Of a stretch of DNA of 64,000 nucleotides, positions 26,658 to 63,205 are shown piece by piece. This DNA is from Mesorhizobium sp. 113-3-3 (GTDB taxonomy: Bacteria; Pseudomonadota; Alphaproteobacteria; Rhizobiales; Rhizobiaceae). How positions within the stretch are numbered: position 1 is the stretch's first letter; each line of letters begins with the position of its first letter. Both the position numbers and the translations under genes were made by a program. Under the pieces are notes generated by a model. The model saw only the letters and a list, made by a program, of their open reading frames with translations. It was not told the DNA's origin and made no database searches. The stretch lies in NCBI RefSeq assembly GCF_016756495.1, contig NZ_AP023243.1, positions 6,080,501-6,144,500 of the forward strand, written 5' to 3'.

Positions 26658-26702
26658 GACTGCGCATTCCCTTGGCTGACTGGAGCGCTTTCCTTTTGGG
26701 GT

Positions 26703-28561: not shown

Positions 28562-29284
28562 TCATGCGGCCGCAGCCGCGACCTCGATCGAGGTCGACTG
28601 CTCTTCCCAGGCAATCGCCTGCGCATTCTGGAAGTCATCGACGCGACCGATGTCGAGCCAGAGACCGTCATGCTTGTACACGTGCACGGTCGTGCCGCCC
28701 TGCATCATCTGCAGCATCAGGTCATCGAATCCGAATGGGATGCCGGAAGGAATGAAGCGCAGGACATCCGGGTTCATGCAGTAAATTCCCATGCTGACGA
28801 GATGGGAAAGCGTCGGCTTTTCCCGGAAGAGCTGAACGGCATTGTCGATCTCGTCGATGACGCCGAAGTCCATCTTGATGAGACGGCAGGCCGTGGCGAT
28901 CGTAACCGGGTCCTTGTGCATGCGGTGCGCGGCCACGAACCGGCTGAGGCTCAGGTCGGTGAGAACATCGCCGTTGAGCACGACAAATGTGTCGTTCAGT
29001 TCATCCCTGATCAGAGAGAGAGGCCCGATGGTCCCCAATGGCTCCATTTCCTGCGTGTACCTGATCTTCAGATTCCATTGCGATCCGTCGCCGCAGACGC
29101 TGCGGATCAGATGCCCGAGATAACCGGTCGTGATATAGACCTCTTCGATGCCGTTGCGCCGCAGCCACTTCAGAAGCAGCTCAAGAACAGGCCTGGCCCC
29201 TATCGGCATCAAGGGTTTCGGCAGGACCGACGTGAAGGGCCGAAGGCGTGTACCCATCCCGCCACATTGAATCACCGCTTTCAT
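28562..29284 (-). CDS. Sugar-1-phosphate nucleotidyltransferase
   Basis: The 240-residue protein has the nucleotidyltransferase signature MKAVIQCGGMGTRLRPFTSVLPKPLMPI, with Lys in the PKPL motif, the FVVLNGDVLTDL metal-binding Asp and the DIGRVDDFQNA C-terminal block. It resembles GlmU/RfbA-like and mannose-1-phosphate guanylyltransferase-like pyrophosphorylases lacking the acyltransferase domain. It would activate a sugar phosphate for the polysaccharide repeat. The exact nucleotide and sugar are not decidable by eye. ATG 29284 follows GGAGG at 5 nt. It is the first gene of the minus-strand polysaccharide operon ending near 23 kb. Confidence 0.87.
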   Translation of the reverse strand: MKAVIQCGGMGTRLRPFTSVLPKPLMPIGARPVLELLLKWLRRNGIEEVYITTGYLGHLIRSVCGDGSQWNLKIRYTQEMEPLGTIGPLSLIRDELNDTFVVLNGDVLTDLSLSRFVAAHRMHKDPVTIATACRLIKMDFGVIDEIDNAVQLFREKPTLSHLVSMGIYCMNPDVLRFIPSGIPFGFDDLMLQMMQGGTTVHVYKHDGLWLDIGRVDDFQNAQAIAWEEQSTSIEVAAAAA

Positions 29285-29854
29285 CCGATCCTCCCTGATT
29301 TGCAGTTGGCTGTGTCCGGGCATTTCGTGTTCGAGCTCATCTGGACCTGGCATCCGTCCAATCCGGCTCGACCCTCGGCGGCAATCCGAACATCATATTT
29401 GAAGCGTATGTGACAGCCGGGGCGGCTGTCGTCGTGCATTCGAATGGTACCGATCCAAAGCGTTTCCGGTATTAGATAACCGCTTGATCAAGGACCGACC
29501 CAAGCATCCGGACCTGGCCATGAGACCAATGAAGCCGAACGAATCTTGCGATCAAAAAACAGTGATCCGCCACGTGCCGGAACAGGCCTGCGCACCCGAC
29601 GGGCACTCGATGTCGCTCGGCAGGCAGGCACGGGACGCCAGCGTTAAAAAAAATAACGACGCGTTTTCGAAAATTAGTATTATATTAGTCATTCGTGATG
29701 TGCGTGGGTTGGGACGCTGCGAACATCACGGTGATGCGATGACCAGCGGTAGGCCACGACTTCAGGGATCACCGCGGTTCCGACCATCACAAAGGAATGG
29801 GAGGTTCCAGCGGATATTCCCGTCGGGAACCGGGTAACGCGTTGGGGTAGTTCA
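29285..29854. other. Divergent intergenic region with AT-rich stretch
   Basis: This gap of 570 bp lies between the minus-strand polysaccharide operon and the plus-strand LuxR response regulator gene. Around 29640-29700 it is strikingly AT-rich compared with the rest of the window, with ATTAGTAT and ATTAGTCATT repeats. It probably carries the promoters of both units. No coding sequence is supported. Confidence 0.45.
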
Positions 29855-41252: not shown

Positions 41253-41253
41253 T

Positions 41254-42510
41254 CTAATATCTCCTCCGGCGAACGATCGCGGGGATCGCCTGCGGCTTTC
41301 CAGCGACAAGGGAGAGGGTCAGACAGAACCACAGGATCGGATGACGGATGATCAGGTGCGGTGCACTGAAGACAGCGATCGATGCCACGAGCGCCACGAG
41401 GGCGTCCTGTCTCGCACGCCAGGCGGACCAGCCGGCCGAGCCGAGGATCCACAGCAGGGCCAGGACCGAAATCAGGCCGCCCTGAGTGTAGAGATCGAGG
41501 ATCGTGCTATGGGCCTCGAAAGGCCGCGGCAGAAACTGCTGGTTGACGATGGGGGGACGATCAAGGTGCGGGCCTGGTCCGAGACCCAGCGACCCGGATC
41601 TTGCTCCCTTGTTCAATGCCTCGTCCCAAAGGTAGAGGCGAAGTGCGGCGGTTTCCGCGGTCGCTTCCCCGCCCTTGTCCTTGGTGAGGCTCTTGGCGAA
41701 GTCTTCGGCGCTGGCGGCCTCGCTGAGGGCGTAAGGCGCGATGGAGATTGCCAGCGGAACGAACGCAATCGTGAACAGGAGGGCAAGTTGCCGTGAAAGG
41801 CTGACCTTGCCGTCGCTTGTCAGCCATGCCCGAACCCGCAGTCCCAGAAGGATCAGGCAAGCCAGGACCGTCGTATAGAGATAGGTATCGCTCTTTGTCA
41901 GCCGACCGACATAGAAGGTGAGGATCAGGCTGCACAGCGCAAGGCATCTTCCCCAGTTATTGCTGGTGGTTGTGGCAAGATGCAGGGCCAAAGGACCGAG
42001 GAGCGCGCAGTAGAGCGCAAGCTGGTTCGGATTTTCAGACCAACCGGAGAAGCGGTCCCAGTACCAGGGGTGGACGCCAGACTGATGGATCCAGCCGAAA
42101 CCAACCCCGACCTGAATGACAAAGCCAGCATTCGCGACAGCGATCATCCACCAGGCGATACGGCGCAAACGGACAGCCGCGTTGGGCTCCGCGGCAGCCA
42201 GGCAGGTGACGCAGGCCAGCAGCACGTAGGCCATCGTGTCATGCAACAACGGATCGAGGAACAGTGTGGTCGTCAGAAAGCCGACGATGGAGCCCACGCC
42301 CAGGGCAAGCGTCAGGATCACCCAGAAAAGGGCAAGTTTGGTGAGGGCCGGCGTAACCTCCAGTCGGCCGCCGGCAAGAACCCGCGTGATCGACAGCAAT
42401 ATCCAGAGCGAGAGGAACAGTTCGCTGTAGCCGAACGGCAGCCCCGGGATGCCGAGTTGCACCGCGTAGGACATCACGATGCCGATGGCCAGGATCGCGT
42501 CACGGATCAT
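41254..42510 (-). CDS. O-antigen polymerase/ligase-type membrane protein (Wzy-like)
   Basis: The 418-residue integral membrane protein has about 10-11 helices (for example AILAIGIVMSYAVQLGIPGLPFGYSELFLSLWILL) and a large periplasmic loop. The loop holds an O-antigen ligase/polymerase-type stretch (RLYLWDEALNKGARSGSLGLGPG, then EAHSTILDLYTQGGLISVLALL). Proteins of this pattern polymerise or ligate lipid-linked repeats. Given the flippase and Wzc-like protein, polymerase is the likelier role. Its start overlaps the glycosyltransferase stop by 4 nt and its stop lies just before the asparagine synthase start, so all belong to one operon. Confidence 0.85.
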   Translation of the reverse strand: MIRDAILAIGIVMSYAVQLGIPGLPFGYSELFLSLWILLSITRVLAGGRLEVTPALTKLALFWVILTLALGVGSIVGFLTTTLFLDPLLHDTMAYVLLACVTCLAAAEPNAAVRLRRIAWWMIAVANAGFVIQVGVGFGWIHQSGVHPWYWDRFSGWSENPNQLALYCALLGPLALHLATTTSNNWGRCLALCSLILTFYVGRLTKSDTYLYTTVLACLILLGLRVRAWLTSDGKVSLSRQLALLFTIAFVPLAISIAPYALSEAASAEDFAKSLTKDKGGEATAETAALRLYLWDEALNKGARSGSLGLGPGPHLDRPPIVNQQFLPRPFEAHSTILDLYTQGGLISVLALLWILGSAGWSAWRARQDALVALVASIAVFSAPHLIIRHPILWFCLTLSLVAGKPQAIPAIVRRRRY

Positions 42511-43730: not shown

Positions 43731-44119
43731 CCTGTCCCTCCTGGATGCCGGCAGAATCCCAACCGCGCTAAACCGCTGGCCCTATGACCTGTTTTCATGG
43801 CCCGGTTTCATCGCCCCAGTACGCACAACACCCAGGTTTCACGCTAGGAGCAGGCTCACGCGTTGTCCTCGTCTGTTTAAATGAAGCAAGGGGTTGGGCG
43901 ATGCGGCGATGTAGCGGCAACGGCCGCCGGATCGATGAGTTGAACTGGAACTCATTCGTTCTAACGATGCCACGGTCAACGGGGTCGCGTACGACACGGC
44001 AAATCCAGTCAGCAAACAAGGGGGCTGTGTTGGAAACGTCGGGGCACCCGCGTTTAGAGAGCCGTTTTCCACGCGCCTTGCCATCCGTTGGGGGACCGAC
44101 AACGGATCAAGATGTTGTG
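43731..44119. other. Divergent promoter region between GT4 and A-PCP-TE genes
   Basis: About 390 bp with no supported gene. The A-PCP-TE frame stays open leftwards to 43784, but that part has no family match and the paralogue's N-terminus aligns from about 44120. It should carry promoters for both the GT4-led operon (minus) and the A-PCP-TE gene (plus). Confidence 0.4.
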
Positions 44120-46792
44120 ATGGCCCGCAACATCAGCCCTCCAGACGGCTTCACATGGAAACGGGCCTCCACCCGCCCTCTGGACATGGACGGACCAACC
44201 AGCCGTCCCTTCCCGCGGATGGGCGACGACTTCTCCGAAAAGTCGGCGTTCTCGCACCTCGAGCGGACCGTCGAAAAATACCCGGACAAGATCGCGATCA
44301 GCGACGGCTCCACATCCCTCAGCTTTTCGGAACTGCTCAACGCAGTCCAAAACCTGGCAAGTGCGATTGCAGGTTCGGCCCCACCGGGCAAGGCGGTCGG
44401 TATCCTCATCGGAAATACACTTTGGTATCCGGTGGCCATGCTCGCCGCCATGCGTGCCGGCAGGCCCGCCGTGCCGTTGAACCCCCGGGATCCATTTCAG
44501 CGCCTCGCCGCGATTGCCACCAGCGCGCGGCTGGCTGCGATCATCAAGCCAGGGCCGGGCAAACCGGCAGACTGGCCGGATGCCCCCTCGCTTGAATGGA
44601 TCGATGCGGCAAGTTGCATGGCCGCAACGCCGGATGGCAGCCTGTCGGCGTTGCCGTCCGACGTGTCGGTCGATGCTCCTGCAATCGTTCTGTACACCTC
44701 AGGCAGCACCGGGGCGCCGAAAGGCGTCGTGAACAGCCAGCGGGCGATCCTCCAACGCGTTCAGCAATATGTGGATGCCTGCCACTTCGGCCCCGACGAC
44801 GTATTCATGCCACTGACTGGGCCTGCAACGATCGCCGGATGCCGCGAGATGATGACGCCGATGCTGTGCGGCGCCACATTGTACCTCTCGGATATCGAGA
44901 GCGCCGGTATTCGCGCCGCCCGCGACAATTTTCAGAAATGGCGGGTAACGGTCGTCTATCTCGTGCCAGCGCTGCTGCGTGTGTTGATGAATGGTTCCGC
45001 GCCCGACACATTCTCTTCCTTGCGGATCGTGCGGGTCGGCGGAGAAAAGATCCTATGGTCCGACATCGATCGGCTTCGCGGCAGCGTTCCCGAGTCCTGC
45101 CTCGTCCAGATCAGCTATTCGTCCACGGAAACGACCGGCACGCAATGGTTCCTGCCGAGGGGCTACCAAGAGCGCGGCGCAACGGTGCCCGTCGGCTTCG
45201 TGCTGCCCGGCATCGAATACACCATCGTGGATGAGGACGCATGCGAGGTCGCCCCGGGCGATGAAGGAGAGTTGCTGATCAGAGGCAACTACACCACGCT
45301 CGGCTACTGGGCGGATGGAGAAAACGTCCCTCTTCAGGCGAACTCCGGCAACCCCTGGCTTCGAACCTTCGCAACGGGTGATCTGGTCAAGATCGACGAC
45401 ACCGGAATGATGTGGATCGTCGGACGAAAGGGACGCCAGATCAAGATAAACGGGAGGCGGGTCGAACCTGCCGAACTGGAACTCGTCCTGCGCCGGGCGC
45501 CTCGGGTGGATGATGCTGTTGCGGTGGTGACGGACGCGAACGAACTGGTGGCCTTTGTCGTCCCCGCGAGACCGGCCGGAAGCGAGTTCATTGCCGGACT
45601 GCGCGACCTGATCAGGGCGGGCCTGCCGCCGGCTGTTCACCCGACGCGACTGCACAGTGTTGCCGAGATACCGCGGCTCAAAGGCGGCAAGGTCGACGGT
45701 GTCACGCTGCGGGAACTGGATCGCGCGCTGAGCGCGCAAGAGAACACGCCTATCGCCCGGCAAGCGGCCAACCCGCTCGATGTCGAGGGCACCGCGGCGG
45801 CCGTATGGGAGAGGATACTCCCGGGCAAAAGGGCGGCTGGCAGCCGCTGGGACGATGCCGGTGGCGATTCACTGAAGCTGCTGCAATTCGTCATGGAACT
45901 TGAGACGGCGCTGGGGCGGGAACTCAACCTGGACGCCTTCACCGTCGGGATGAGCTTCGCCGATGTCGTCCGGGCAGCGTCTCCAGGGCAAGACACAAGC
46001 AACTCGCTTGTCGAGGTTTCCGACCCGAGACCTGTTCTGTTCATCGTGCCCGGATCGATCGGCTATGGTCCGAGCCTGGCGGCCTTCGGTGCCGAGATGG
46101 GCGATGTCGCCAGGGTTGTTGCCGTGCGCTATGGGGATTTGAACGATCTGCTGAAGGGACATGGCACGATACCGCGGATGGTGGATGCGGTTGTCGACCA
46201 GATCAGCCAGGTCCAGCCCGATGGCAATGTGAAACTGATCGGTTATTCGCTTGGCGGCGGCGTCGCCTTCGAGGTTGCCGCCAAACTTGTTGCCGCCGGT
46301 CGGTCGGTCACGTTCCTGGGAATCCTCGACACCAATATCGGGCCTGGACAGCACAACTATCGTGAAAGACTCGCACGCACCGCCCAGCGCATCCGCACGC
46401 ATCGAGTGACGGTGGATCGCATGATTTTGCGGGCTCTGGCAAAATTGTTCGCCCAATTTGGTGCCGAGGCTGTGCTTGCGAGGGGCATCGACTGGCTGAA
46501 ATGGAGGAGCTTCGCCAGAATAAGATTCATCTTGCGCCTTGAGCTGGAAGAAATCCTGCGGATGCGTGCATTTGGTCAGTGGCTGGCGCAGCCGAAGCCC
46601 GCATTGCCGATTACCGCCACCCTGTTTCGGTGCAGGCGCACAGGCGTTCCGTCAGACCTTGGCTGGAGTGCTTTCGTCACCGGCCTGAACATAATTCCGA
46701 TCGTCGGCGGGCACCTGGACATGCTGGTTGAACCCTATCTCAGCCACAACCGTCCGCTGATAGAAAGAGCGTTTGTGGTGAGCGGCGCATAG
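44120..46792 (+). CDS. A-PCP-TE tri-domain NRPS-like protein, paralogue 1
   Basis: This protein of about 890 residues has three domains. The adenylation domain (about 30-530) carries A3 LYTSGSTGAPKG (about 190), an A5-like SYSSTETTG, A7 FATGDLV, A8 GRKGRQIKINGRRVEPAELE (about 434) and A10 Lys in LKGGKVDG. The carrier domain has the 4'-phosphopantetheine Ser in WDDAGGDSLKLL (about 577). The C-terminal thioesterase has GYSLGGG (about 708), Asp in LGILDTN and His in VGGHLDM (about 863). There is no condensation domain, so it activates one carboxylic or amino acid, loads it and releases or transfers it. A close paralogue is at 50083. ATG 44120 is chosen by alignment with the paralogue; earlier in-frame starts exist to 43784. 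Confidence 0.85.
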   Translation: MARNISPPDGFTWKRASTRPLDMDGPTSRPFPRMGDDFSEKSAFSHLERTVEKYPDKIAISDGSTSLSFSELLNAVQNLASAIAGSAPPGKAVGILIGNTLWYPVAMLAAMRAGRPAVPLNPRDPFQRLAAIATSARLAAIIKPGPGKPADWPDAPSLEWIDAASCMAATPDGSLSALPSDVSVDAPAIVLYTSGSTGAPKGVVNSQRAILQRVQQYVDACHFGPDDVFMPLTGPATIAGCREMMTPMLCGATLYLSDIESAGIRAARDNFQKWRVTVVYLVPALLRVLMNGSAPDTFSSLRIVRVGGEKILWSDIDRLRGSVPESCLVQISYSSTETTGTQWFLPRGYQERGATVPVGFVLPGIEYTIVDEDACEVAPGDEGELLIRGNYTTLGYWADGENVPLQANSGNPWLRTFATGDLVKIDDTGMMWIVGRKGRQIKINGRRVEPAELELVLRRAPRVDDAVAVVTDANELVAFVVPARPAGSEFIAGLRDLIRAGLPPAVHPTRLHSVAEIPRLKGGKVDGVTLRELDRALSAQENTPIARQAANPLDVEGTAAAVWERILPGKRAAGSRWDDAGGDSLKLLQFVMELETALGRELNLDAFTVGMSFADVVRAASPGQDTSNSLVEVSDPRPVLFIVPGSIGYGPSLAAFGAEMGDVARVVAVRYGDLNDLLKGHGTIPRMVDAVVDQISQVQPDGNVKLIGYSLGGGVAFEVAAKLVAAGRSVTFLGILDTNIGPGQHNYRERLARTAQRIRTHRVTVDRMILRALAKLFAQFGAEAVLARGIDWLKWRSFARIRFILRLELEEILRMRAFGQWLAQPKPALPITATLFRCRRTGVPSDLGWSAFVTGLNIIPIVGGHLDMLVEPYLSHNRPLIERAFVVSGA

Positions 46793-50082: not shown

Positions 50083-52839
50083 ATGTCTTCAGCGTATTTG
50101 CAGTCTGAAGCGGTGGATCAAGATCGACGGTTGGATTGTCGACCGACGACGACCCGCGGATGGTCAGATATTCCCGAATATGCTCTTGACGATGGGGGCC
50201 CCCTCGGGCGCCGGTATCAACAGATGGGCGCCGGTTTTGCGGACATTCCCGTCTTCGATCACCTCAGAAACGTCGCCAGTCAATATCCCGACAAGCTCGC
50301 GATTGGCGACGGTGCCAATCGCCTGACTTATTCCGAGCTTTTCCGGGCTGTCGAGACATTATCGCACCGTATCGCCGCCGTCGTTCCCGAAAGACAGGCG
50401 GTCGGAATCCTTCAGGCCAATTCGACCTGGTACGCTGTGGCGATACTGGCAAGCATGGCGGCCGGGCGGCCTTCGGTTCCGCTGAACATGAGAGATCCGG
50501 GCTCTCGGATCATCGAGATTGCGAACGCCGCGCGGCTCGGCGCCATCATAGGCGCTGGAAACGTTCGCCCCATCGATTTGGCGCCGGAAGTCCTATGGAT
50601 CGATATTGCCGCCGGCGTCGCACCGAACGGTCAGCAGGCATCACAGCAGCCGAAGCTCCCTTCCGTTTCCGTCGATGCGCCCGCGATGGTGCTTTACACA
50701 TCAGGTAGCACGGGACGTCCCAAGGGCATCGTCAACAGCCAACGCAGCCTGCTGTGGCGGGTCCGGCAATATGTCGAGGCGTGCCATATCAACGCGGATG
50801 ACGTTTTCCTGCCTCTGACCGGGCCTGCCACGATTGCCGGCTGCCGGGAGATTCTTACGGCGCTGCTGACAGGCGCCACGTTGCATCTTCTCGAGGTGGA
50901 AGCGGTCGGCCTGCGCGCGGTCCGCGCTCGGGTTCAAGCCGAAGGTGTGACGATCGCCTATCTCGTGCCGGCTCTGCTGCGGGCGCTGTTGACCGAGGCC
51001 CCCGCTGACGCCTTCCAGTCGCTCCGGGTGGCCCGGATCGGTGGCGAGAAGGTGTCCTGGACGGACATCGCGTTGCTGCGCAAGGCCGTTTCGGATCAGT
51101 GCCTGATCCAGATCGGCTACTCGTCAACCGAGACCACCGGCTCGCAATGGTTCCTGCCGCAGGATTGGCCGGAGCAGGACGCATCGATCCCCGTTGGCAG
51201 GCTGCTCCCTGGGATGGCATTCGCCATTGTCGACGAGGCGGGTCGCAATGTTGGGACAGGCGAGAGCGGGGAGCTTCTGATCAGAAGCCCCTATGTCCTG
51301 CTTGGTCATTGGGAGAACGGTGTCGTCGTTCCCGCGCGGCCCGACCCTGACGATCCCGGTGTTCGGGTTTTTGCGACGGGCGACCTCGTTCGGCTGGACG
51401 GTGATGGCCTGTTGCGCATCGTCGGCCGCAAAGGGCGCCAGATCAAGATCAATGGTCGGCGCGTCGAGCCCGCCGAGCTCGAACGGGTCCTGCGCTGCGC
51501 GCCTTCGGTGGCGGATGCCGTGGCAATCGTAACGCCGGCCGAGGAACTCATCGCATTCGCGGCTCCGCAGCACTTTGCCGGAGCCGCTTTTGCGGAGGAG
51601 CTTCGCCAACTCGTCAGAACGACGTTGCCGGCGCCGCTGCGTCCCTTGCGGTTGCACACCATCGCCGAGATCCCCCGCCTGCCGGGAGGCAAGGTCGACC
51701 TGGCAACGCTCACCGAAATGGATCGCTCGGAGAGAGAGACGGCGCCAGTCGCCCAGCCGACCACTGCCCGGCCGCTCCCCGTGGGAGGCGAACTGAATAC
51801 AAGGCAAATCGTGCAGCACGCGTGGATGCAGGTTCTCAACACGGGCGCCGCGGCGGGGAACTGGGATGACGCGGGAGGAGATTCGCTGCAGCTGCTGCAT
51901 TGCGTCATGGCGATCGAAAGCGCCATCGGGCAAGAGCTCGGCCTCGAGGCCTTCACCGTCGGCATGAGCTTCGACGAGATGGTTGAGGCGGTCGTGTCCG
52001 CACAGGCAGGGGAGCAGCGCGCCAAGAAGCTGCATCCTCCGATGCTTTTCCTGTTTCCAGGATCCGTCGGCTATGGTCCGAGCCTGGCTGCGTTCGCAGC
52101 CGCCATGGGCAAAGTCGCCCGGGTGAACCCGATCCGGTATCCTGGCCTCGCCGCGATATTGGACGGACACAACAGTCTCGCCGCCATGGCTGCCGCCGCG
52201 CTCGGGCAGATAGACCGCGCCCAGCCTACCGGCCCCGTGCGGCTTCTCGGCCATTCGCTTGGTGGCGCGGTTGCGTTCGAGGTCGCCGCGCGGCTTCTGG
52301 CAGCCGGCCGATCGGTAAGGTTTTTGGGTATCCTCGACACGAGCCTTCTGGACGAGCCGAGCAACCATTGGGGAACGCTCACCCGCACGTTCCATCGCAT
52401 TCGCACGAACCGCATTTCCGCCCACCGCATGGCTTGCCGAGCCCTCGCGAAGATCACCGTTGCCATGGGCTGCGAGGCGTATCTCGCGAGGATTCTCGAC
52501 CGCTTTGCCAAGGGAGAGTTCAGCCCGACAAGCTTCAGAACCAAGCTGGAACTGCAGGAAGTCATGCGGGCGCGGTCGTTCTTCCAGTGGCTGGAGGCAC
52601 CCAAACCGGCGCTGCCCATCTCCGGCACCTTGTTCCGCTGTCGACGGGAGGGAATGCCCCGGGCCTTGGGCTGGGACAGCGCCCTGGCACATCTGGACGT
52701 GGTGCCGATCATGGGCAATCACATCGACCTTGTCATAGAGCCCAATCTTGCCACCAACCGTCCGCTCATCGAGACGGCCGTCGTGCAGACCTACTCCGCG
52801 GCCGAGTCTCGCAAAAGGGAGGATCTGTCATCGACGTGA
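50083..52839 (+). CDS. A-PCP-TE tri-domain NRPS-like protein, paralogue 2
   Basis: The 918-residue protein shares domain order and most motifs with the protein encoded at 44120. These are A3 LYTSGSTGRPKG (about 203), YSSTETTGSQWFLP, A7 FATGDLV, A8 GRKGRQIKINGRRVEPAELE (about 447), A10 LPGGKVDL, the carrier Ser in WDDAGGDSLQLL (about 596), thioesterase GHSLGGA (about 723), LGILDTS and MGNHIDL (about 879). The two probably arose by duplication. This copy heads a compact operon: the next gene's GTG start overlaps its TGA by 4 nt. It likely activates a single acid for an amide- or ester-forming step; the substrate cannot be predicted by eye because the A5 region is atypical. Confidence 0.87.
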   Translation: MSSAYLQSEAVDQDRRLDCRPTTTRGWSDIPEYALDDGGPLGRRYQQMGAGFADIPVFDHLRNVASQYPDKLAIGDGANRLTYSELFRAVETLSHRIAAVVPERQAVGILQANSTWYAVAILASMAAGRPSVPLNMRDPGSRIIEIANAARLGAIIGAGNVRPIDLAPEVLWIDIAAGVAPNGQQASQQPKLPSVSVDAPAMVLYTSGSTGRPKGIVNSQRSLLWRVRQYVEACHINADDVFLPLTGPATIAGCREILTALLTGATLHLLEVEAVGLRAVRARVQAEGVTIAYLVPALLRALLTEAPADAFQSLRVARIGGEKVSWTDIALLRKAVSDQCLIQIGYSSTETTGSQWFLPQDWPEQDASIPVGRLLPGMAFAIVDEAGRNVGTGESGELLIRSPYVLLGHWENGVVVPARPDPDDPGVRVFATGDLVRLDGDGLLRIVGRKGRQIKINGRRVEPAELERVLRCAPSVADAVAIVTPAEELIAFAAPQHFAGAAFAEELRQLVRTTLPAPLRPLRLHTIAEIPRLPGGKVDLATLTEMDRSERETAPVAQPTTARPLPVGGELNTRQIVQHAWMQVLNTGAAAGNWDDAGGDSLQLLHCVMAIESAIGQELGLEAFTVGMSFDEMVEAVVSAQAGEQRAKKLHPPMLFLFPGSVGYGPSLAAFAAAMGKVARVNPIRYPGLAAILDGHNSLAAMAAAALGQIDRAQPTGPVRLLGHSLGGAVAFEVAARLLAAGRSVRFLGILDTSLLDEPSNHWGTLTRTFHRIRTNRISAHRMACRALAKITVAMGCEAYLARILDRFAKGEFSPTSFRTKLELQEVMRARSFFQWLEAPKPALPISGTLFRCRREGMPRALGWDSALAHLDVVPIMGNHIDLVIEPNLATNRPLIETAVVQTYSAAESRKREDLSST

Positions 52840-53819
52840 TCTCACACTTCAGCAAGGACGCGTTGCTGCTCGATGCCCGTGCGGAGGTCGATCGCATCGT
52901 CGACACCTTGCGCAAGCAGGTTCTTGGCACGCTCCATCGTCGCGGCGTGGTTGTCGGCCTTTCCGGCGGCATCGACAGCTCCGTCGTCGCGACCTTGTGC
53001 ACACGCGCCTTCGGCAAGGACAAAGTCCTGGGGCTGTTCATGCCGGAGCGCGATTCCTCCGGCGACTCGCTCAGACTTGGCCGCCGTGTCTCGGCACAGC
53101 TGGGGATTGAGAACATCCTGGAAGACATAGGCCCGGCAGTAGAGGCCGTCGGCGCCTACCGTCGGCAGCTCGAGGCGATCCGGACCGTCGTTCCCGACTA
53201 TGGGGACGGCTGGAAATGCAAACTGGTGATTGAGCCGGTGCTCGCCAGCAACGGCCTCAACATCACCCGGCTCACCGTCCAGGATCCAGAGGGCAAGGTC
53301 GACACGGTGCGTCTTTCGCCAGCCGCCTATCTGCAGATCGTCGCGGCAACCAACTACAAACAGCGCCTGCGCAAGATGACGGAATATTACCACGCCGACC
53401 GCCTCAAATACGCGGTTGCGGGGACACCAAACCGTTTGGAGTACGACCAGGGGTTTTTCGTCAAGCAGGGCGACGGAACCGCCGACGTGATGCCGATCGT
53501 CCACCTTTACAAAAGCCAGGTCTATCAGCTCGCGGAATATCTTGGCGTGGACGAGGAAATTCGCCAGCGGCCACCAACCACCGACACATTCTCCATGGCG
53601 CAAAGCCAGGAGGAGTTCTACTTCGCGCTGCCCTATCACCTGATGGATCTATGCCTTTACGGCCTGAACCATGGGATCGCCAGAGATGAAGTCGCGGCGG
53701 TTGCCGGTCTCACCGAGCTCCAACTGCAGAAAGTCTTCAAGGACATCGACGCGAAACGGCGGGCCGCCCACTATCTTCACGCGCGGCCTTTGCTGTCCAT
53801 GGAAATTGGCGAGGATTGA
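52836..53819 (+). CDS. nadE: NadE-family (NH3-dependent NAD synthetase-like) amidating enzyme, cluster paralogue
   Basis: This 327-residue ATP-pyrophosphatase has the PP-loop VVGLSGGIDSSVVATL (about residue 35) and NadE-type blocks AGTPNRLEYDQGFFVKQGDG, ADVMPIVHLYKSQVYQLAEYLG and RPPTTDTF. There is no nitrilase-like glutaminase domain, so ammonia must come from elsewhere, perhaps from the AsnB-like protein encoded next. The start is GTG 52836, which overlaps the A-PCP-TE stop (GTGA); the longer open frame is a shadow. Its place between A-PCP-TE and AsnB genes suggests a specialised amidation instead of housekeeping NAD synthesis, though it may still make NAD. Confidence 0.85.
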   Translation: MISHFSKDALLLDARAEVDRIVDTLRKQVLGTLHRRGVVVGLSGGIDSSVVATLCTRAFGKDKVLGLFMPERDSSGDSLRLGRRVSAQLGIENILEDIGPAVEAVGAYRRQLEAIRTVVPDYGDGWKCKLVIEPVLASNGLNITRLTVQDPEGKVDTVRLSPAAYLQIVAATNYKQRLRKMTEYYHADRLKYAVAGTPNRLEYDQGFFVKQGDGTADVMPIVHLYKSQVYQLAEYLGVDEEIRQRPPTTDTFSMAQSQEEFYFALPYHLMDLCLYGLNHGIARDEVAAVAGLTELQLQKVFKDIDAKRRAAHYLHARPLLSMEIGED

Positions 53820-53825
53820 CCGGGG

Positions 53826-55853
53826 ATGTGCGGCATCGCTGGAATTGTGGCGCTGAACGCCGCGGCGGCTTCTCCTTCGCGTGAGGCGCTGATACGGATG
53901 GTGGGCGCGCTGGCGCATCGCGGCCCGGACGAGCGCGGCCTTTACCGGGACAAGCGCGCGGGGCTGGCGCATGCCCGCCTGTCCGTCGTCGATCTCTCCA
54001 GCGGCCAGCAGCCGCTCGCGGACACAGGCGATACGACCTGGATCGTCTTCAACGGCGAGATATTCAACTATGTCGAGCTGCGCGAAAAGCTGATTGCGCT
54101 CGGTCACCGCTTCCGAACCCGCAGCGACACGGAGGTCGCGCTGCACGCGTATCGCGCGTGGGGCGAAGCGGCCTTCGAGCGGATGAACGGCCAATGGGCA
54201 ATAGCAATCTGGGACTCAATGGCGGGTCGTCTCGTCTTGTCGCGCGACCGGTTCGGCATTTGCCCCCTGCATTTTTGCGAGCATGCGGGCCGGCTTTATT
54301 TCGCCAGTGAAGTGAAGGCTATTTTCGCCGCCGATCCGACCATCCCTCGCGCTCTTGATCCCGCCGGCCTCGATCAGACCTTCACGCTCTGGACGGTCGT
54401 TCCCCCGCAAGGGGTATTTCAGGGCATCCATGAACTCGTGCCAGGGCATGTCCGCACTTACCAGGACGGCACCGTTCGTGACCACGCCTTCTGGCAACCT
54501 TCCTATCCTGAAAATTTCGGATCGCCGCAGGGCGAGTTCACCGGATCGTGCGATGAGGCCGTGGACCGCGTGCGCAGCGCGCTCGAGGCCGCGACGGCGC
54601 TACGAATGGTGCGCGCCGACGTGCCCGTCGGCTGTTACCTTTCCGGCGGGCTGGACAGTTCGCTTGTGGCGACACTGGGAAGGCGCTTCGCCGGCCGGCG
54701 CTTCCAGACCTTCTCCTTGCGTTTTGCCGACGCCGAATACGACGAGACCCGCTTCCAGCGCCTGGTTGCCGAAGCAACCGGCAGTGAGCACCATGAGGTG
54801 GTGGTTTCGCGCAGCGATATCGCCACGATCTTTCCAGAGGTGATCTACCACACCGAACGCCCGATACTGAGGACCGCCCCGGCGCCGCTGTTCCTGCTTT
54901 CGAAGCTGGTGCGTGAGCGTGGCATCAAGGTCGTGCTGACCGGCGAAGGCGCCGATGAAATGTTCGCCGGCTACGACCTGTTTCGCGAAGCCAAGGTCCG
55001 CCGGTTCTGGGGGCACCAGCCGGCATCGACACGACGCTCGCGGCTGCTGGAGCGCCTTTATCCCTATCTCACCCGCTCGCCGGTGCAACAGCAGGCGATG
55101 GCGCGCAAGTTCTTCGGGCGCGGCATCGAGAGCCATGACGCCCCCGGCTTCGCCCACGACACGCGCTGGCGCGGCACCAGCGCCATCAAGCGCCTGTTTT
55201 GCGCGGAGCTGCGCGCCGAAACCCAGCGTCATGACACCGTTTCCGAATTGCTCGCCGGCCTGCCCGAGGCGTTCTCGCGCTGGAGCCCGCTTGCGCAGGA
55301 CCAGTATCTCGAGGTCCAGACCTTGATGTCGGGATATCTGCTTTCCTCGCAGGGCGACAGGATGCTGATGGCCCACTCCGTCGAGGGGCGCTTCCCCTTC
55401 CTGGACGATGAGCTCGTGAGCCTCGCGAATTCGCTTCCGCCTTCCTACAAGCTGCGTGTCCTCGATGAGAAGCACGTGCTGAAACGCGTGGCGGAGCCGA
55501 TCGTGCCCGCCGAGATCGTGACCCGCAAGAAGCAGCCATTCCGGGCGCCCAACGCGCTTTGCTTCGCCGACGAAACCGCACCGGAATATATTCGCGAAGC
55601 GCTTTCGGAGACGGCGATACGCAAGGCGAATGTTTTCGATCCGATTTCGGTCACGCGCCTGCTCGGCAAGTGCCAGGCCAGGACCGGCGACGGTGACCTT
55701 TCCAATGCCGACAACATGGCGCTCGTCGGCGTGCTGTCGACCCAACTCCTTCACCAGCAGTTTGTCGCAAGCTGTCCCAGTGCAGCGCGCGTGCATGGGC
55801 TGAGCGTCGATGTCGACCACGAACATCGGGAGGAGCGCTTGCATGTTGCATGA
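53826..55853 (+). CDS. asnB: Asparagine synthase-like amidotransferase (AsnB family), operon paralogue 2
   Basis: The 675-residue protein has catalytic Cys2 in MCGIAGIVAL, the glutaminase domain blocks RGPDERGLYR and IVFNGEIFNYVELR, then the synthetase domain with YLSGGLDSSLVATLG and LTGEGADEMFAGYDLF. The EGRFPFLDDELV region near residue 520 is the usual C-terminal marker. The active sites look complete. It starts 6 nt after the NadE-like stop and its end overlaps the acyl-AMP ligase start by 11 nt. In this operon it may amidate a carrier-bound or sugar carboxylate. It is distinct from the AsnB-like protein at 39-41 kb. Confidence 0.88.
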   Translation: MCGIAGIVALNAAAASPSREALIRMVGALAHRGPDERGLYRDKRAGLAHARLSVVDLSSGQQPLADTGDTTWIVFNGEIFNYVELREKLIALGHRFRTRSDTEVALHAYRAWGEAAFERMNGQWAIAIWDSMAGRLVLSRDRFGICPLHFCEHAGRLYFASEVKAIFAADPTIPRALDPAGLDQTFTLWTVVPPQGVFQGIHELVPGHVRTYQDGTVRDHAFWQPSYPENFGSPQGEFTGSCDEAVDRVRSALEAATALRMVRADVPVGCYLSGGLDSSLVATLGRRFAGRRFQTFSLRFADAEYDETRFQRLVAEATGSEHHEVVVSRSDIATIFPEVIYHTERPILRTAPAPLFLLSKLVRERGIKVVLTGEGADEMFAGYDLFREAKVRRFWGHQPASTRRSRLLERLYPYLTRSPVQQQAMARKFFGRGIESHDAPGFAHDTRWRGTSAIKRLFCAELRAETQRHDTVSELLAGLPEAFSRWSPLAQDQYLEVQTLMSGYLLSSQGDRMLMAHSVEGRFPFLDDELVSLANSLPPSYKLRVLDEKHVLKRVAEPIVPAEIVTRKKQPFRAPNALCFADETAPEYIREALSETAIRKANVFDPISVTRLLGKCQARTGDGDLSNADNMALVGVLSTQLLHQQFVASCPSAARVHGLSVDVDHEHREERLHVA

Positions 55854-57396
55854 TGCCGTACCCCTGCTGCATGACTATCTCGCGCACTCCGCCGGCCGGC
55901 TCGGCGACAAGGTGGCGCTGGTGTGCGGCAAGCAACGTGTCACCTATGGCGAGCTCGAGGCGCGCGCCAATGCGATCGCCGGGGATCTGGCCGCATCAGG
56001 GGTGGCACGCGGCGATCGCGTGATGATCTTCGCCGACAACACCGTCGAGACGGTGGTGAGCTTCTGGGCGGTGCTCAAGGCGAATGCTGTGGTGTGCATC
56101 GTCAACCCGCTGACCAAGAGCGACAAGCTTGATTATCTGCTCAACGACTGCCGACCGGCGGCGCTGATCACGGATGCGCATCTGCACTCCATCTTCCGCG
56201 AGCCGGCGCGCAATTGTCCGTCACTTCTGCGGACGATCGTTTCCGGATCGATCGACGACACCGAACTCTCCCGATTGCCGCAAGCCGTGCGCTGGGAAGC
56301 CGCGGTCGCCGCCGGCGACGCACCGCCGTCGCGGCGCTGCATCGATATCGATCTTGCCGCCATCATCTACACCTCCGGCTCGACTGGCGAACCCAAGGGT
56401 GTGATGCTGACGCACAGGAACATGATGACCGCGTGCACGTCGATCGCGTCCTACCTCGAGCTTGCCGAGGACGAGGTGATCCTCAATGTCCTGCCCCTCG
56501 CCTTCGACTACGGTCTGTACCAGATGATCATGGCGTTTCGCACCGGCGCCCGGCTGGTGCTCGAACGCTCATTCGCCTTCCCGGCGCAGGTGCTTGCGCT
56601 GATCAGGCAAGAGAGGGTTACGGGGTTTCCCGGCGTGCCGACCATCTTTGCGGCGCTCTCCGAACTCAAGTCCCTCAGGGACCAGGATTTCTCAAACATT
56701 CGCTACGTGACAAACACCGCGGCCGCGCTGCCCCTCAAGCATATTCTCATGCTTCAGGAGCTGTTTTCGAGCGCACGCATCTATTCGATGTACGGCCTCA
56801 CCGAATGCAAGCGTTGCACCTATCTGCCGCCGGAGGATCTCAAGCGAAAGCCATTGAGTGTCGGGATCGCGATCCCGAATACGGAAATGTGGATCGTCGA
56901 CGAACATGACAGGCGGGTCGGCCCCGGCGTCGTCGGCCAGCTCGTCATTCGCGGCGCAACGGTGATGAAGGGATATTGGGGCAAGCCCGAGCCTACGGCC
57001 AGGAAGCTCAAACCCGGCCCGCTGCCCGGCGAGCAGGTCCTGTACACCGGCGACTACTGCCGGATGGACACGGAGGGCTACCTCTACTTCGTCGGCCGTG
57101 GTGATGAGATCATAAAATCGCGCGGCGAGAAGGTGGCGCCGAAGGAAGTGGAGAACGTGCTGATGGATATTCCGGGGGTCCGGGAAGCCGCGGTCATCGG
57201 TGTTCCCGACGAACTCCTTGGGCAGGCGGTGAAGGCGTTTGTCGTGATGGAGAACGGAAGAACCATCGGCGAAAAGCAGTTGCAGATGGAATGCCAGAAA
57301 CGACTGGAGAACTTCATGGTTCCGAAGTCCATCGTCGTCGTGGCCAGCCTGCCGATGACGGACACGGGCAAACTCAAGAAAACGGCCCTGTCATGA
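55843..57396 (+). CDS. Acyl-CoA/acyl-ACP synthetase (AMP-forming ligase)
   Basis: This 517-residue ANL-superfamily ligase has the P-loop motif IIYTSGSTGEPKGVMLTH (about residue 175), the A5-like SMYGLTECKRCTYL, A7 YTGDYCRMD, A8 GRGDEIIKSRGEKVAPKEVE and A10 Lys in MTDTGKLKKT. The C-terminal subdomain is complete. The adjacent ACP gene (44 nt downstream) makes it likely that the activated acid is passed to that carrier. Similar ligase-ACP pairs occur in exosortase-linked and polysaccharide loci. ATG 55843 has GGGAGGAG upstream and overlaps the AsnB gene by 11 nt. The acyl substrate is unknown. Confidence 0.88.
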   Translation: MLHDAVPLLHDYLAHSAGRLGDKVALVCGKQRVTYGELEARANAIAGDLAASGVARGDRVMIFADNTVETVVSFWAVLKANAVVCIVNPLTKSDKLDYLLNDCRPAALITDAHLHSIFREPARNCPSLLRTIVSGSIDDTELSRLPQAVRWEAAVAAGDAPPSRRCIDIDLAAIIYTSGSTGEPKGVMLTHRNMMTACTSIASYLELAEDEVILNVLPLAFDYGLYQMIMAFRTGARLVLERSFAFPAQVLALIRQERVTGFPGVPTIFAALSELKSLRDQDFSNIRYVTNTAAALPLKHILMLQELFSSARIYSMYGLTECKRCTYLPPEDLKRKPLSVGIAIPNTEMWIVDEHDRRVGPGVVGQLVIRGATVMKGYWGKPEPTARKLKPGPLPGEQVLYTGDYCRMDTEGYLYFVGRGDEIIKSRGEKVAPKEVENVLMDIPGVREAAVIGVPDELLGQAVKAFVVMENGRTIGEKQLQMECQKRLENFMVPKSIVVVASLPMTDTGKLKKTALS

Positions 57397-57440
57397 GGCG
57401 GGGTCGCTAAATCGGTGGTGTCGCCACGGAGGGTGAATTC

Positions 57441-57701
57441 ATGTTGACTGTCAAGGACCGAACCTACAGCGAGCAGATCCGCAGTTTCCTGGTTTCGAAT
57501 TTCTACGTGAGCGACGTGAAGGCGTTGGTAGACGACACGTCCTTGCTCGATCAAGGCATCGTCGACTCGACGGGAGTGCTTGAGATTATCGGCTTTATCG
57601 AGGAGACCTTTGGCATCACCGTCGAAGACAGCGAGCTCTTGCCTGAAAACCTCGATTCCATTCAAGGGATCGAGCAGTACATCATCCGCAAGATGAACTG
57701 A
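57441..57701 (+). CDS. Acyl carrier protein
   Basis: This 86-residue acidic helical carrier has the phosphopantetheine Ser in LLDQGIVDSTGVLEII (about residue 38) and the helix III block FGITVEDSELLPENLDSIQG. It differs from fatty-acid AcpP (which has DSLDTVE), indicating a dedicated carrier. It ends the plus-strand operon starting with the second A-PCP-TE gene and probably receives the acid activated by the upstream ligase. A GAGGGTGA site precedes the ATG. Confidence 0.88.
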   Translation: MLTVKDRTYSEQIRSFLVSNFYVSDVKALVDDTSLLDQGIVDSTGVLEIIGFIEETFGITVEDSELLPENLDSIQGIEQYIIRKMN

Positions 57702-57753: not shown

Positions 57754-58524
57754 TCACGCCTGCGCCTTGGCTTGCCCCAGAACCACCCGGCCCTCGCCCG
57801 CTTCGTTCGATACAATGCGGATGTTCTCGTATGCCTTGCTGCGTTCCAGCAGCCCGATCACCTGCCGGTCCTGGCCTAGGCCGACCTCGAAGAGCAGGAT
57901 GCCGCCAGGCCGCAAGTATCGCGGCGCGTCTTTCACCACCCGCATATGGATGCTCAGGCCGTAAGGGCCGGCCGCGAACGCTTCACGCGGCTCGAGTTCG
58001 ACCAGATGCGCGCGGTCGCCCTCGAGCCGCTTTTCCGAAATGTAGGGCGGATTGCAGACGATCACGTCGATCGTCGCGTCAAGCTCGAGGCCCGAGAGCG
58101 CGTCGAACAAGTCGCCCTGAAGCACCGAAACACGGTCAGCCATGCCGTGATGGGCGGCGTTACGGCGTGCCACGTCGACGCATCCGTCGGTGAGGTCGCT
58201 CGCCCAGACACGCGCGGTGGGACTGCGGTGGGCGATGGCACACGCCAGATTGCCAGTGCCGCAACACATGTCGACGATGCGCGGCGCCGGCAGATTCATT
58301 TGATGCAAGACACCGAGGGCCGTCGTGCCCAGCAATTCCGTCTCTGGCCGGGGGACGAGCGCGCCGGGCGCGACGAGCAGCTCAAGTCCCATGAAGACGG
58401 CGCGGCCCGAGCCATAGGCGTCGGCGACACTGAACTCTTTGCTCATCGCGAACCCCTGACCTTCCCAGTATAGGCGTTCGGCATTCGCACGCCAGTCAAA
58501 CCTGTCATTGGAGAACCCCGGCAA
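57754..58524 (-). CDS. PrmC/HemK-like SAM-dependent methyltransferase
   Basis: The protein of about 256 residues has the HemK/PrmC fold marks: FMGLELLVAPGALVPRPETELL, SAM motif IVDMCCGTGNLACAIA and the amide/amine-methylation motif VCNPPYI. It is shorter at the N-terminus than true PrmC, so it probably methylates another N-containing substrate, perhaps the cluster's product. The start is unclear: TTG 58524 keeps a plausible N-terminus, while ATG 58446 has an AGGGG site. It is convergent with the ACP gene and 12 nt downstream of the aldo/keto reductase gene on the same strand. Confidence 0.78.
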   Translation of the reverse strand: MPGFSNDRFDWRANAERLYWEGQGFAMSKEFSVADAYGSGRAVFMGLELLVAPGALVPRPETELLGTTALGVLHQMNLPAPRIVDMCCGTGNLACAIAHRSPTARVWASDLTDGCVDVARRNAAHHGMADRVSVLQGDLFDALSGLELDATIDVIVCNPPYISEKRLEGDRAHLVELEPREAFAAGPYGLSIHMRVVKDAPRYLRPGGILLFEVGLGQDRQVIGLLERSKAYENIRIVSNEAGEGRVVLGQAKAQA

Positions 58525-62296: not shown

Positions 62297-62297
62297 C

Positions 62298-63125: not shown

Positions 63126-63205
63126 GTCAGTCTCCAGATGCACGTCGCAAAGCCGGGCGCGCCGCGCCCCTCGTCAGGCCGCGGCACTTGGGATGAGCCA
63201 TCGCC

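What the first reader, a model, noticed from the sequence alone, without database searches (positions are those of the whole stretch)
50083..57701. Compact operon joining A-PCP-TE, NadE-like, AsnB-like, acyl-AMP ligase and ACP: candidate undescribed amide/acyl pathway
Five genes are packed with overlaps or tiny gaps (GTGA overlap at 52836-52839, 6-nt gap, 11-nt overlap, 44-nt gap). They encode two separate carboxylate-activating systems (A-PCP-TE; ligase plus ACP) and two ammonia-using or amidating enzymes (NadE-like, AsnB-like). There is no condensation or ketosynthase domain, so this is not a standard NRPS or PKS. The A-PCP-TE could load an amino acid, the AsnB/NadE pair could amidate, and the ACP could carry an acyl donor for a sugar or small molecule. 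The whole set abuts a polysaccharide locus. Motifs are seen directly; the pathway is inference.
Basis: partly seen in the sequence, partly recalled or inferred. Interest (0 to 1): 0.8.

Follow-up and report, generated by a model that had tools for sequence, protein, structure and literature searches.

The report
NadE-like/AsnB/ligase/ACP amide module
A four-gene set that would load an acid onto a carrier protein and make amide groups is kept together in bacteria as different as root-nodule rhizobia and myxobacteria, often beside genes for surface sugars, so its gene labelled 'NAD synthase' probably does a different job.

Summary
In detail: five co-directional genes with the stated overlaps and gaps. 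The conserved unit is four of them: NadE-like, AsnB-like, acyl-AMP ligase, ACP. In a draw of 249 genomes of the order, 16 carry the NadE-like protein and all 16 have the other three beside it. Of 43 non-redundant loci with enough flank, 38 have all three; none of 20 canonical nadE loci has any. Of 27 other carrier genomes, 24 hold a separate full-length NAD synthetase and 3 a weaker long match, so the NadE-like protein is hardly the housekeeping enzyme. The A-PCP-TE is less conserved: only its thioesterase part remains in Bradyrhizobium. A PrmC-like methyltransferase outside the given coordinates accompanies 12 of 23 type A loci. In 7 of 8 genomes titled Bradyrhizobium, sugar nucleotidyltransferase, 4-amino-sugar transaminase and priming-transferase genes follow the ACP. 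Best reading: an amidated, ACP-bound acyl group goes onto a surface glycan, probably an amino sugar (0.4). The four genes also lie on S. meliloti 1021 pSymB, where I recall that they were partly studied in 2009; the product is unknown.

The parts
50083..52839 (+). A-PCP-TE protein (918 aa); only the TE part (about residues 650-918) is retained in Bradyrhizobium and Phreatobacter
   Evidence: Pfam AMP-binding and Thioesterase; PCP Ser and TE Ser present; TE-only relatives
52836..53819 (+). NadE-like N-type ATP pyrophosphatase (327 aa, GTG start); core
   Evidence: NCBIfam PRK00876 (NF002048) 513.6 bits against cut-off 313; AF2 model pLDDT 91.4, best Foldseek hits NAD synthetases; 58 residues without counterpart in canonical NadE
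53826..55853 (+). AsnB-like glutamine amidotransferase/synthetase (675 aa); core
   Evidence: TIGR01536 578.9 bits; Cys2, SGGxDS and GEGADE invariant in 96 of 96 rows
55843..57396 (+). acyl-AMP ligase (517 aa from ATG 55843); core
   Evidence: PF00501; best NCBIfam model TIGR03098 at 482 bits, below its cut-off of 592
57441..57701 (+). stand-alone acyl carrier protein (86 aa); core
   Evidence: PF00550; attachment Ser 90 of 90 rows
57754..58446 (-). PrmC/HemK-like class I methyltransferase (230 aa from Met; the TTG ORF reaches 58524), convergent with the ACP gene
   Evidence: TIGR03534 178.7 bits, below cut-off 199.1; NPPY 55 of 55; a higher-scoring HemK-family gene elsewhere; lies between ligase and ACP on the same strand in L079, L084, L096, L098, L099
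58537..59496 (-). aldo/keto reductase, upstream of the methyltransferase; doubtful member (only in closest relatives)
   Evidence: PF00248; seen in 5 of 108 loci, the window included, two of the five being one contig
43784..46792 (+). paralogous A-PCP-TE (1002 aa), about 52-53% identical to the one at 50083
39255..41309 (-). second AsnB-like amidotransferase, EPS type; neighbouring polysaccharide locus
   Evidence: TIGR03108 565.8 bits against cut-off 816.9
27374..28510 (-). DegT-family 4-amino-sugar transaminase (PseC/ArnB-like); candidate maker of the acceptor sugar
   Evidence: PF01041; TIGR03588 307.8 bits, below cut-off 423.5; its homologue lies shortly after the ACP in Bradyrhizobium
28562..29353 (-). 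sugar-1-phosphate nucleotidyltransferase
   Evidence: PF00483
34741..43730 (-). polysaccharide assembly genes: flippase-like, Wzz-like, amidotransferase, membrane protein (Wzy-like by my reading, no Pfam match), GT4

Best explanation
The four core genes make an amide-bearing acyl group on a dedicated carrier protein for a surface glycan. The ligase adenylates a carboxylic acid and passes it to the free-standing ACP. The AsnB-like enzyme hydrolyses glutamine and amidates a carboxylate of that building block. The NadE-like enzyme, a NAD-synthetase relative with a rebuilt acceptor pocket, adenylates a second carboxylate (or an amide) and adds ammonia, possibly ammonia released by its usual neighbour AsnB. 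Where present, the PrmC-like methyltransferase methylates a nitrogen, as PrmC does on glutamine. An acyltransferase that differs by lineage (a double-GNAT protein in about half of type B loci, a hexapeptide-repeat transferase in several beta-proteobacterial and myxobacterial loci, perhaps the thioesterase domain in Rhizobiales) moves the group to an acceptor, most likely the amino group of a 4-amino-deoxy sugar of an exopolysaccharide. Shown: the genes, the intact motifs, the co-conservation, the neighbours. Inferred: substrates, the order of steps, the acceptor, the roles of methyltransferase, acyltransferases and TE.
For: Co-conservation: 16 of 16 carriers in the order draw; 38 of 43 non-redundant loci; 0 of 20 canonical nadE loci. 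The proteins diverge in step with the NadE-like protein: AsnB r 0.91 (52 loci), ligase 0.84 (51), ACP 0.87 (49), methyltransferase 0.81 (20), 0 of 500 permutations reaching each; shared descent of the genomes adds to such values. The NadE-like protein keeps 24 conserved positions of canonical NadE, among them SGGxDS, but 23 positions conserved in both groups differ and 58 residues are extra. Of 27 carrier genomes, 24 have a separate full-length NAD synthetase over cut-off and 3 a weaker long match. In 8 loci from 7 Bradyrhizobium genomes a nucleotidyltransferase, a PseC/ArnB-like transaminase and a Bac_transf priming transferase follow the ACP (gene order on one strand read in L081, L086 and L093). 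Polysaccharide markers: 18 of 42 loci against 0 of 20 controls. The double-GNAT partner has an N-acyltransferase fold. NGR234 has the module beside two GNATs, the methyltransferase, a flippase-like and a chain-length-determinant-like protein; the last two are my reading of the sequences.
Against: No substrate, product or acceptor is known. 24 of 42 loci show none of the polysaccharide markers within 9.5 kb; 3 of the 18 that do show only an epimerase; and with two or more marker kinds the type A non-rhizobial group (1 of 11) and type B (3 of 20) do not differ clearly from controls (p 0.36 and 0.12). In the window the sugar genes lie about 6-27 kb upstream of the operon, mostly on the other strand. 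No acyltransferase was identified in the Rhizobiales type A loci. Bradyrhizobium loci lack the methyltransferase nearby (0 of 8). L076, titled Bradyrhizobium sp. NFR13, has Tardiphaga-like gene content and no such sugar genes near. Some loci lack a core gene (ligase in L108, AsnB in L138 and L143, ACP in L104), two Polyangiaceae are dispersed (L105, L106), and in L082, L104, L105, L133 and L134 the nearby ligase is a distant one (33-38% identity; in L082 and L105 on the other strand). In plasmid pMspAR07a the A-PCP-TE frame looks broken within the TE. The S. meliloti ACP was reported to carry C12:0 or C18:0 when co-expressed with its ligase in E. coli (recalled), which would fit a plain fatty acyl group better.
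Confidence: 0.4

Rival explanations
1. A fatty-acyl-ACP lipidation module: the ligase loads a long-chain fatty acid on the ACP, and an N-acyltransferase (GNAT in type B) puts it on an amidated amino compound, giving a lipo-amino-acid amide or a lipidated glycan.
For: The second-best NCBIfam model for the ligase is a long-chain fatty-acid ligase (397.7 bits); the best ACP model is the ornithine-lipid ACP (47.7 bits, far below its cut-off of 130); the GNAT partner's best Foldseek hits are N-myristoyltransferases (TM-scores about 0.5); recalled report of C12:0/C18:0 on the S. meliloti ACP.
Against: The best PDB matches of the ligase are amino-acid adenylation domains (314 bits) ahead of fatty-acyl ligases such as FadD13 (196 bits). 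Asp at pocket position 235 in 81 of 97 rows and Arg at 330 in 97 of 97 (numbering recalled) suggest a polar or charged substrate. The GNAT partner is absent from 23 of 23 non-redundant type A loci.
Confidence: 0.25
2. A stand-alone pathway to a small amidated metabolite (natural product, osmolyte or signal), released by the TE or by an acyltransferase; nearness to polysaccharide genes is incidental.
For: 24 of 42 loci have no polysaccharide marker in range; the TE is kept in most Rhizobiales type A copies looked at.
Against: 0 of 20 control loci have any polysaccharide marker, against 18 of 42; Bradyrhizobium has the module inside an exopolysaccharide locus.
Confidence: 0.2
3. One reading: A-PCP-TE loads an amino acid, the ligase plus ACP carries a second acyl group, and NadE/AsnB amidate the joint product.
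For: The A, PCP and TE motifs are intact in the window and in most of the aligned long copies (PCP Ser 41 and TE Ser 42 of 45 rows).
Against: A domain lacks Asp235 (Ile in 42 of 45 rows); A and PCP are absent or degenerate in Bradyrhizobium, Phreatobacter, Tardiphaga robiniae-like and L029 copies; the gene was not seen outside Rhizobiales.
Confidence: 0.08
4. The NadE-like enzyme is a second, ammonia-dependent NAD synthetase and its neighbours are unrelated housekeeping genes.
For: It is named NAD(+) synthase by NCBI's model and keeps the ATP-site loop.
Against: Of 27 carriers checked 24 have a full-length NAD synthetase over cut-off and 3 a weaker long match; near-constant partners; changed conserved positions and a 58-residue insertion.
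Confidence: 0.05

Closest known systems
S. meliloti pSymB operon asnB - ACP (SMb20651) - ligase (SMb20650) - nadE1 (Ramos-Vega et al. 2009; paper, names and findings recalled, not held)
   Same: The same four protein families in one cluster; S. meliloti 1021 pSymB 1450585-1455388 carries them (genes read in the 99.7% identical BL225C stretch L165).
   Different: Order is AsnB-ACP-ligase-NadE; NadE-like proteins 60% identical; no A-PCP-TE and no methyltransferase match in the L165 stretch; product unknown in both.
XrtA/PEP-CTERM exopolysaccharide cluster (TIGR03098 ligase, TIGR03108 amidotransferase)
   Same: Ligase best matches TIGR03098; AsnB also matches TIGR03108; polysaccharide setting.
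   Different: Both score below cut-off (482 of 592; 404 of 817); no exosortase match in the genome; that cluster has no NadE-like member that I know of (recalled).
V. cholerae O1 O-antigen: tetronate on the 4-amino group of perosamine
   Same: A small acid is put on a 4-amino-6-deoxy sugar of a surface polysaccharide (passages of PMC3441752).
   Different: No AsnB or NadE-like enzyme is involved there, as far as I recall; the ligase/ACP details of that pathway are recalled too.
Canonical NAD synthetase family (NadE)
   Same: Same fold and ATP-site loop.
   Different: Separate subfamily PRK00876; insertion, altered conserved positions, near-constant partners. A 2012 survey of nadE contexts in the SEED genomes reported no plausible candidate for an alternative glutaminase subunit (passages of PMC3376133); here an AsnB with a glutaminase domain is the usual neighbour.
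N-acetylglutaminylglutamine amide (NAGGN) pathway
   Same: AsnB-type amidotransferase.
   Different: TIGR03104 377 bits against cut-off 570; its synthetase partner (recalled) is not among the operon's families.

Membership tests
NAD synthetase (functional, NaAD to NAD) | N-type ATP pyrophosphatase fold with SGGxDS loop | tested here: met
NAD synthetase (functional, NaAD to NAD) | conserved positions of canonical NadE kept | tested here: not met
   24 kept, 23 conserved-but-different, 58 extra residues, against 19 glutamine-dependent NadE sequences only; some of the 23 also differ in ammonia-type NadE
NAD synthetase (functional, NaAD to NAD) | converts NaAD to NAD | not testable with these tools
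   needs an assay
NCBIfam PRK00876 (NF002048) NadE subfamily | score over curated cut-off | tested here: met
   513.6 of 313 bits
XrtA/PEP-CTERM EPS system | ligase over TIGR03098 cut-off and amidotransferase over TIGR03108 cut-off | tested here: not met
   482.3 of 592.35; 403.9 of 816.9
XrtA/PEP-CTERM EPS system | exosortase in the genome | tested here: not met
   PF09721: 0 matches at E 0.001
XrtA/PEP-CTERM EPS system | PLP-dependent decarboxylase partner (recalled) | not tested
   none
S. meliloti asnB-ACP-ligase-nadE operon | the four families adjacent on one strand | tested here: met
   window; L165 and L167
S. meliloti asnB-ACP-ligase-nadE operon | gene order AsnB-ACP-ligase-NadE | tested here: not met
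   window order NadE-AsnB-ligase-ACP
S. meliloti asnB-ACP-ligase-nadE operon | same product | not testable with these tools
   product unknown in both
PrmC release-factor methyltransferase (57754-58446) | score over TIGR03534 cut-off | tested here: not met
   178.7 of 199.1 bits; another HemK-family gene at C1:1778870 scores higher
Standard NRPS | condensation domain | tested here: not met
   no condensation domain in the 10 proteins scanned
NAGGN pathway | AsnB over TIGR03104 cut-off | tested here: not met
   377.1 of 570.1 bits

The most novel reading that the evidence does not exclude
The PRK00876 'NAD synthases' are a re-dedicated enzyme family that forms an amide (or amidine) on an ACP-bound or ACP-destined building block, fed with ammonia by a partner AsnB glutaminase. 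Together with ligase, ACP and often an N-methyltransferase they make an acyl group not yet known from bacterial surface glycans, in rhizobia and across several phyla.
Probability: 0.3. Interest if true: 0.8.

Novelty: new variant of a known kind. Interest (0 to 1): 0.55.

Why it matters
[quoted passage not shown] Pathway reconstructions that count it as NAD synthetase are then probably wrong there. The module is on the S. meliloti 1021 symbiotic megaplasmid, a standard genetic model, so its product can be sought with gene deletions and polysaccharide or metabolite analysis. If it decorates rhizobial surface glycans it could bear on host recognition.

Tried and rejected
Rejected: XrtA/PEP-CTERM membership (below cut-offs, no exosortase match). 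NAGGN membership. NadE-like as the only NAD synthetase. 'Two activating systems' as the core. Led nowhere: ten paper searches listed no paper that I recognised as being on this operon; I saw listings, plus passages of PMC3376133, PMC7196632, PMC3441752 and PMC12855168; the library holds only open-licence papers. The PDB sequence search with the type B partner C16 gave one match at E 0.63, so I used a fold search. The ORF at 26226-27338 (+) looks like an antisense ORF and is not counted. Not tested: the order of steps; the TIGR03099 decarboxylase in the genome; NaAD-contact residues from structures.

Limits of the counts: the 80 loci were found by patterns taken from the window's own NadE-like protein and lean to close relatives. 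The unbiased numbers are those (16 of 249; 18 of 397; six carriers are in both draws). The 43 loci are the 55 non-redundant ones (NadE-like identity below 90%, from 107 loci with a NadE-like protein over 250 aa) less 12 with under 6 kb of flank on a side. One search scanned 105 of 144 listed flank proteins, 86 of 146. In the ATE2 rows, 3 of 45 carry the ligase pattern and are probably mis-assigned ligases. The polysaccharide marker set was drawn from the window, L093 (Bradyrhizobium) and NGR234 and favours relatives of those; its Fisher tests take loci as independent. One search found 19 canonical NadE sequences in 21 loci tried.

Full report
WHAT IS THERE. The window belongs to a Mesorhizobium genome: its NadE-like protein is 96% identical to those of M. 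huakuii, M. intechi and M. jarvisii; the genome has 7.73 Mb and the window lies at C1:6080501-6144500. Pfam and NCBIfam give A-PCP-TE, NadE (PRK00876 subfamily, 513.6 bits against a cut-off of 313), AsnB (TIGR01536, 578.9 bits), an AMP-forming ligase and an ACP. The PCP of the first gene has no Pfam match; it is recognised by its GGDS motif.

CO-CONSERVATION. In an even draw of 249 genomes of the order, 16 have NF002048. For all 16, tblastn with the window's proteins finds AsnB, ligase and ACP next to the NadE-like gene. In a draw of 397 genomes of the phylum, 18 have it; of the 12 newly fetched loci 9 have all three, one more (L134) has a ligase at 228 bits just under my cut of 230, and two (L138, L143) lack AsnB. 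A further 80 named loci extend it to Bradyrhizobium, Tardiphaga, Devosia, Phreatobacter, Nitrosomonadales, Gallionella, and MAGs labelled Myxococcota, Acidobacteria, Zixibacteria and Fibrobacteres. Among 43 non-redundant loci with at least 6 kb on both sides, AsnB is present in 40, ligase in 41, ACP in 41, all three in 38, and all three on the same strand in 36. Exceptions are L104 (no ACP), L105 (AsnB 7 kb away), L106 (AsnB and ligase 8-10 kb away, no ACP), L134 and L138. In L082, L104, L105, L133 and L134 the ligase counted or seen is a distant one (33-38% identity). As a control, 20 stretches around the canonical NAD synthetase, from genomes that also carry the module, contain none of AsnB, ligase, ACP or methyltransferase at the same thresholds. 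The proteins diverge in step (r 0.81-0.91 with the NadE-like protein; 0 of 500 permutations reach each), to which shared descent of the genomes contributes.

TWO LAYOUTS. Type A (window, most of the Mesorhizobium loci, Bradyrhizobium, Tardiphaga, beta-proteobacteria, Myxococcota): NadE-AsnB-ligase-ACP. Type B (Devosia, Sinorhizobium, some Mesorhizobium and others): AsnB-ACP-ligase-NadE, in 10 of 20 non-redundant loci with a 370-aa partner C16 within 6 kb. A few loci have other orders (L102, L132). C16 has no Pfam or NCBIfam match, but its AF2 model (pLDDT 85.6) matches N-myristoyltransferases and GNAT acetyltransferases in the PDB (TM-scores 0.5-0.6), so it is probably a double-GNAT N-acyltransferase.

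THE A-PCP-TE. It is full-length in the Mesorhizobium copies read and in L075. In Bradyrhizobium (L081, L085, L086, and L140, which is the same contig as L090) and in Phreatobacter L092 and its unnamed relative L028 only the TE part aligns; in the Tardiphaga-like L023 and L076 (L076 is titled Bradyrhizobium sp. NFR13) a degenerate PCP precedes the TE (its Ser is missing in L023, whose protein I read); in L029 the A domain is degenerate. In pMspAR07a the frame looks broken within the TE, and no gene is annotated there, so even the TE is not kept everywhere. Outside Rhizobiales the gene is not seen at the threshold. Its A-domain pocket, by alignment to solved A domains and recalled GrsA numbering, has Ile at 235 and Arg at 239 in 42 of 45 rows, which is unlike an alpha-amino-acid pocket. 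So the TE is the better conserved contribution.

THE NadE-LIKE ENZYME. The genome has a glutamine-dependent-type NadE (open frame 583 aa) at C1:3943649. All 27 other carrier genomes match the full-length glutamine-dependent model, 24 over its cut-off and 3 (G211, G218, G448) below it, at 212-228 bits, with long frames. The AF2 model (pLDDT 91.4) is a NadE fold (2e18, 3fiu, 1xng on top). Compared with 19 canonical sequences, 24 conserved positions agree, 23 are conserved but different, and 58 residues are extra; 68 columns are invariant among 34 diverse NadE-like proteins. The comparison uses glutamine-dependent NadE only; some of the 23 differences are shared by ammonia-type NadE (see 2e18), so the number is an upper bound. 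3fiu, a NadE relative described as an NMN synthetase, is a precedent for a changed substrate.

THE METHYLTRANSFERASE. The gene at 57754-58446 (-) is PrmC-like but below the PrmC cut-off, and another gene in the genome scores higher. A match lies within 6 kb in 12 of 23 non-redundant type A loci and 3 of 20 type B loci; the type B ones may be other HemK-family genes. Within the operon, between ligase and ACP, it is seen in L079, L084, L096, L098 and L099, and it lies beside the NGR234 type B module (54% identity). NPPY is invariant (55 of 55), the motif of amide- and adenine-N methyltransferases (recalled). None is near the module in the 8 Bradyrhizobium loci.

POLYSACCHARIDE LINK. In the window, flippase-like, Wzz-like, EPS-type AsnB, GT4, transaminase and nucleotidyltransferase genes lie at 27-44 kb. 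In 8 loci from 7 Bradyrhizobium genomes a nucleotidyltransferase, a PseC/ArnB-like transaminase and a priming transferase follow the ACP; the eighth genome so titled, L076, has none of them in range. In L093, in order: GT2 (other strand), FkbM methyltransferase, flippase, TE, the module, nucleotidyltransferase, transaminase, priming transferase, epimerase/dehydratase, export protein (the nucleotidyltransferase was scanned in L086). Over all, 18 of 42 non-redundant loci have at least one marker within 9.5 kb, against 0 of 20 control loci (p 0.0002); with two or more kinds, 8 of 42 against 0 of 20 (p 0.035). By group with one or more: rhizobial type A 4 of 11, other type A 4 of 11 (three by an epimerase alone), type B 10 of 20; with two or more: 4 of 11, 1 of 11, 3 of 20. 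So the link is real but not universal. Hexapeptide-repeat transferases are the most frequent family in the flanks of 12 non-rhizobial type A loci (10 of 105 proteins scanned), and two probes of that kind find none in the 20 control stretches.

WHAT IS KNOWN. The plasmid collection has 116 records with the NadE-like protein, 76 of them Sinorhizobium, and S. meliloti 1021 pSymB carries the four genes at 1450585-1455388. I recall that this operon was noted in 2009 (Ramos-Vega et al., Microbiology 155:257): the ACP SMb20651 takes 4'-phosphopantetheine and, with the ligase SMb20650, was found acylated with C12:0 or C18:0 in E. coli. I could not read it. Ten paper searches in the open-licence library listed nothing that I recognised as being on the operon. 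Passages of PMC3376133 say that a survey of nadE contexts found no plausible candidate for an alternative glutaminase subunit; here an AsnB with a glutaminase domain is the usual neighbour.

MECHANISM. Ligase to ACP loading follows from the families. Amidation by AsnB and by the NadE-like enzyme follows from the shared chemistry (adenylate, then ammonia; described for NADS and AsnB in PMC3376133). Which carboxylates are used, whether on or off the ACP, and what the acceptor is, is inference. An amino sugar is my first choice because of the Bradyrhizobium locus and the acyltransferase partners; the recalled fatty-acyl result keeps a lipid rival alive.

VERDICT. A real, widely conserved and probably mis-annotated module, partly noted before in S. 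meliloti (recalled), with an unknown product.

Noticed in passing
window 43784-46792: A second A-PCP-TE gene, about 52-53% identical to the one at 50083, followed by an RTX-repeat protein (47093-48601) with an unassigned, glycanase-like N-terminal part (my reading): a paralogous pair in one locus.
   Followed up: partly
L036, L038, L039, L045: The pair of A-PCP-TE genes with the RTX protein between them recurs in other Mesorhizobium, so the duplication is not unique to this strain.
   Followed up: partly
L023, L029, L076, L086, L092: Apparent loss of the A and PCP domains from the A-PCP-TE gene in several lineages, leaving a thioesterase upstream of the NadE-like gene.
   Followed up: partly
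L164:1-25000 (Mesorhizobium sp. AR07 plasmid pMspAR07a): The type A module lies on a 345-kb plasmid (typed non-mobilizable) with IS481 and IS66 transposases nearby; its A-PCP-TE frame looks broken.
   Followed up: no
G248, G396 (same genus as the window): Some genomes of the window's genus carry the type B rather than the type A layout.
   Followed up: no
control genome Methanosarcina acetivorans: NF002048 rings in this archaeon, the only one of 14 control genomes; its neighbours were not seen.
   Followed up: no
window 60059-63143: A pair of - strand genes: a 745-aa protein without NCBIfam match and a GvpN/CobS-like AAA ATPase, reminiscent of the NorD/NorQ or CbbO/CbbQ type (recalled), beside an aliphatic amidase at 63206 onward.
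   Followed up: no
L084: The contig is titled Bordetella parapertussis (a MAG), yet its NadE-like protein is 71% identical to the window's and its gene order is like that of Nitrosomonadales L079; the label looks doubtful.
   Followed up: no
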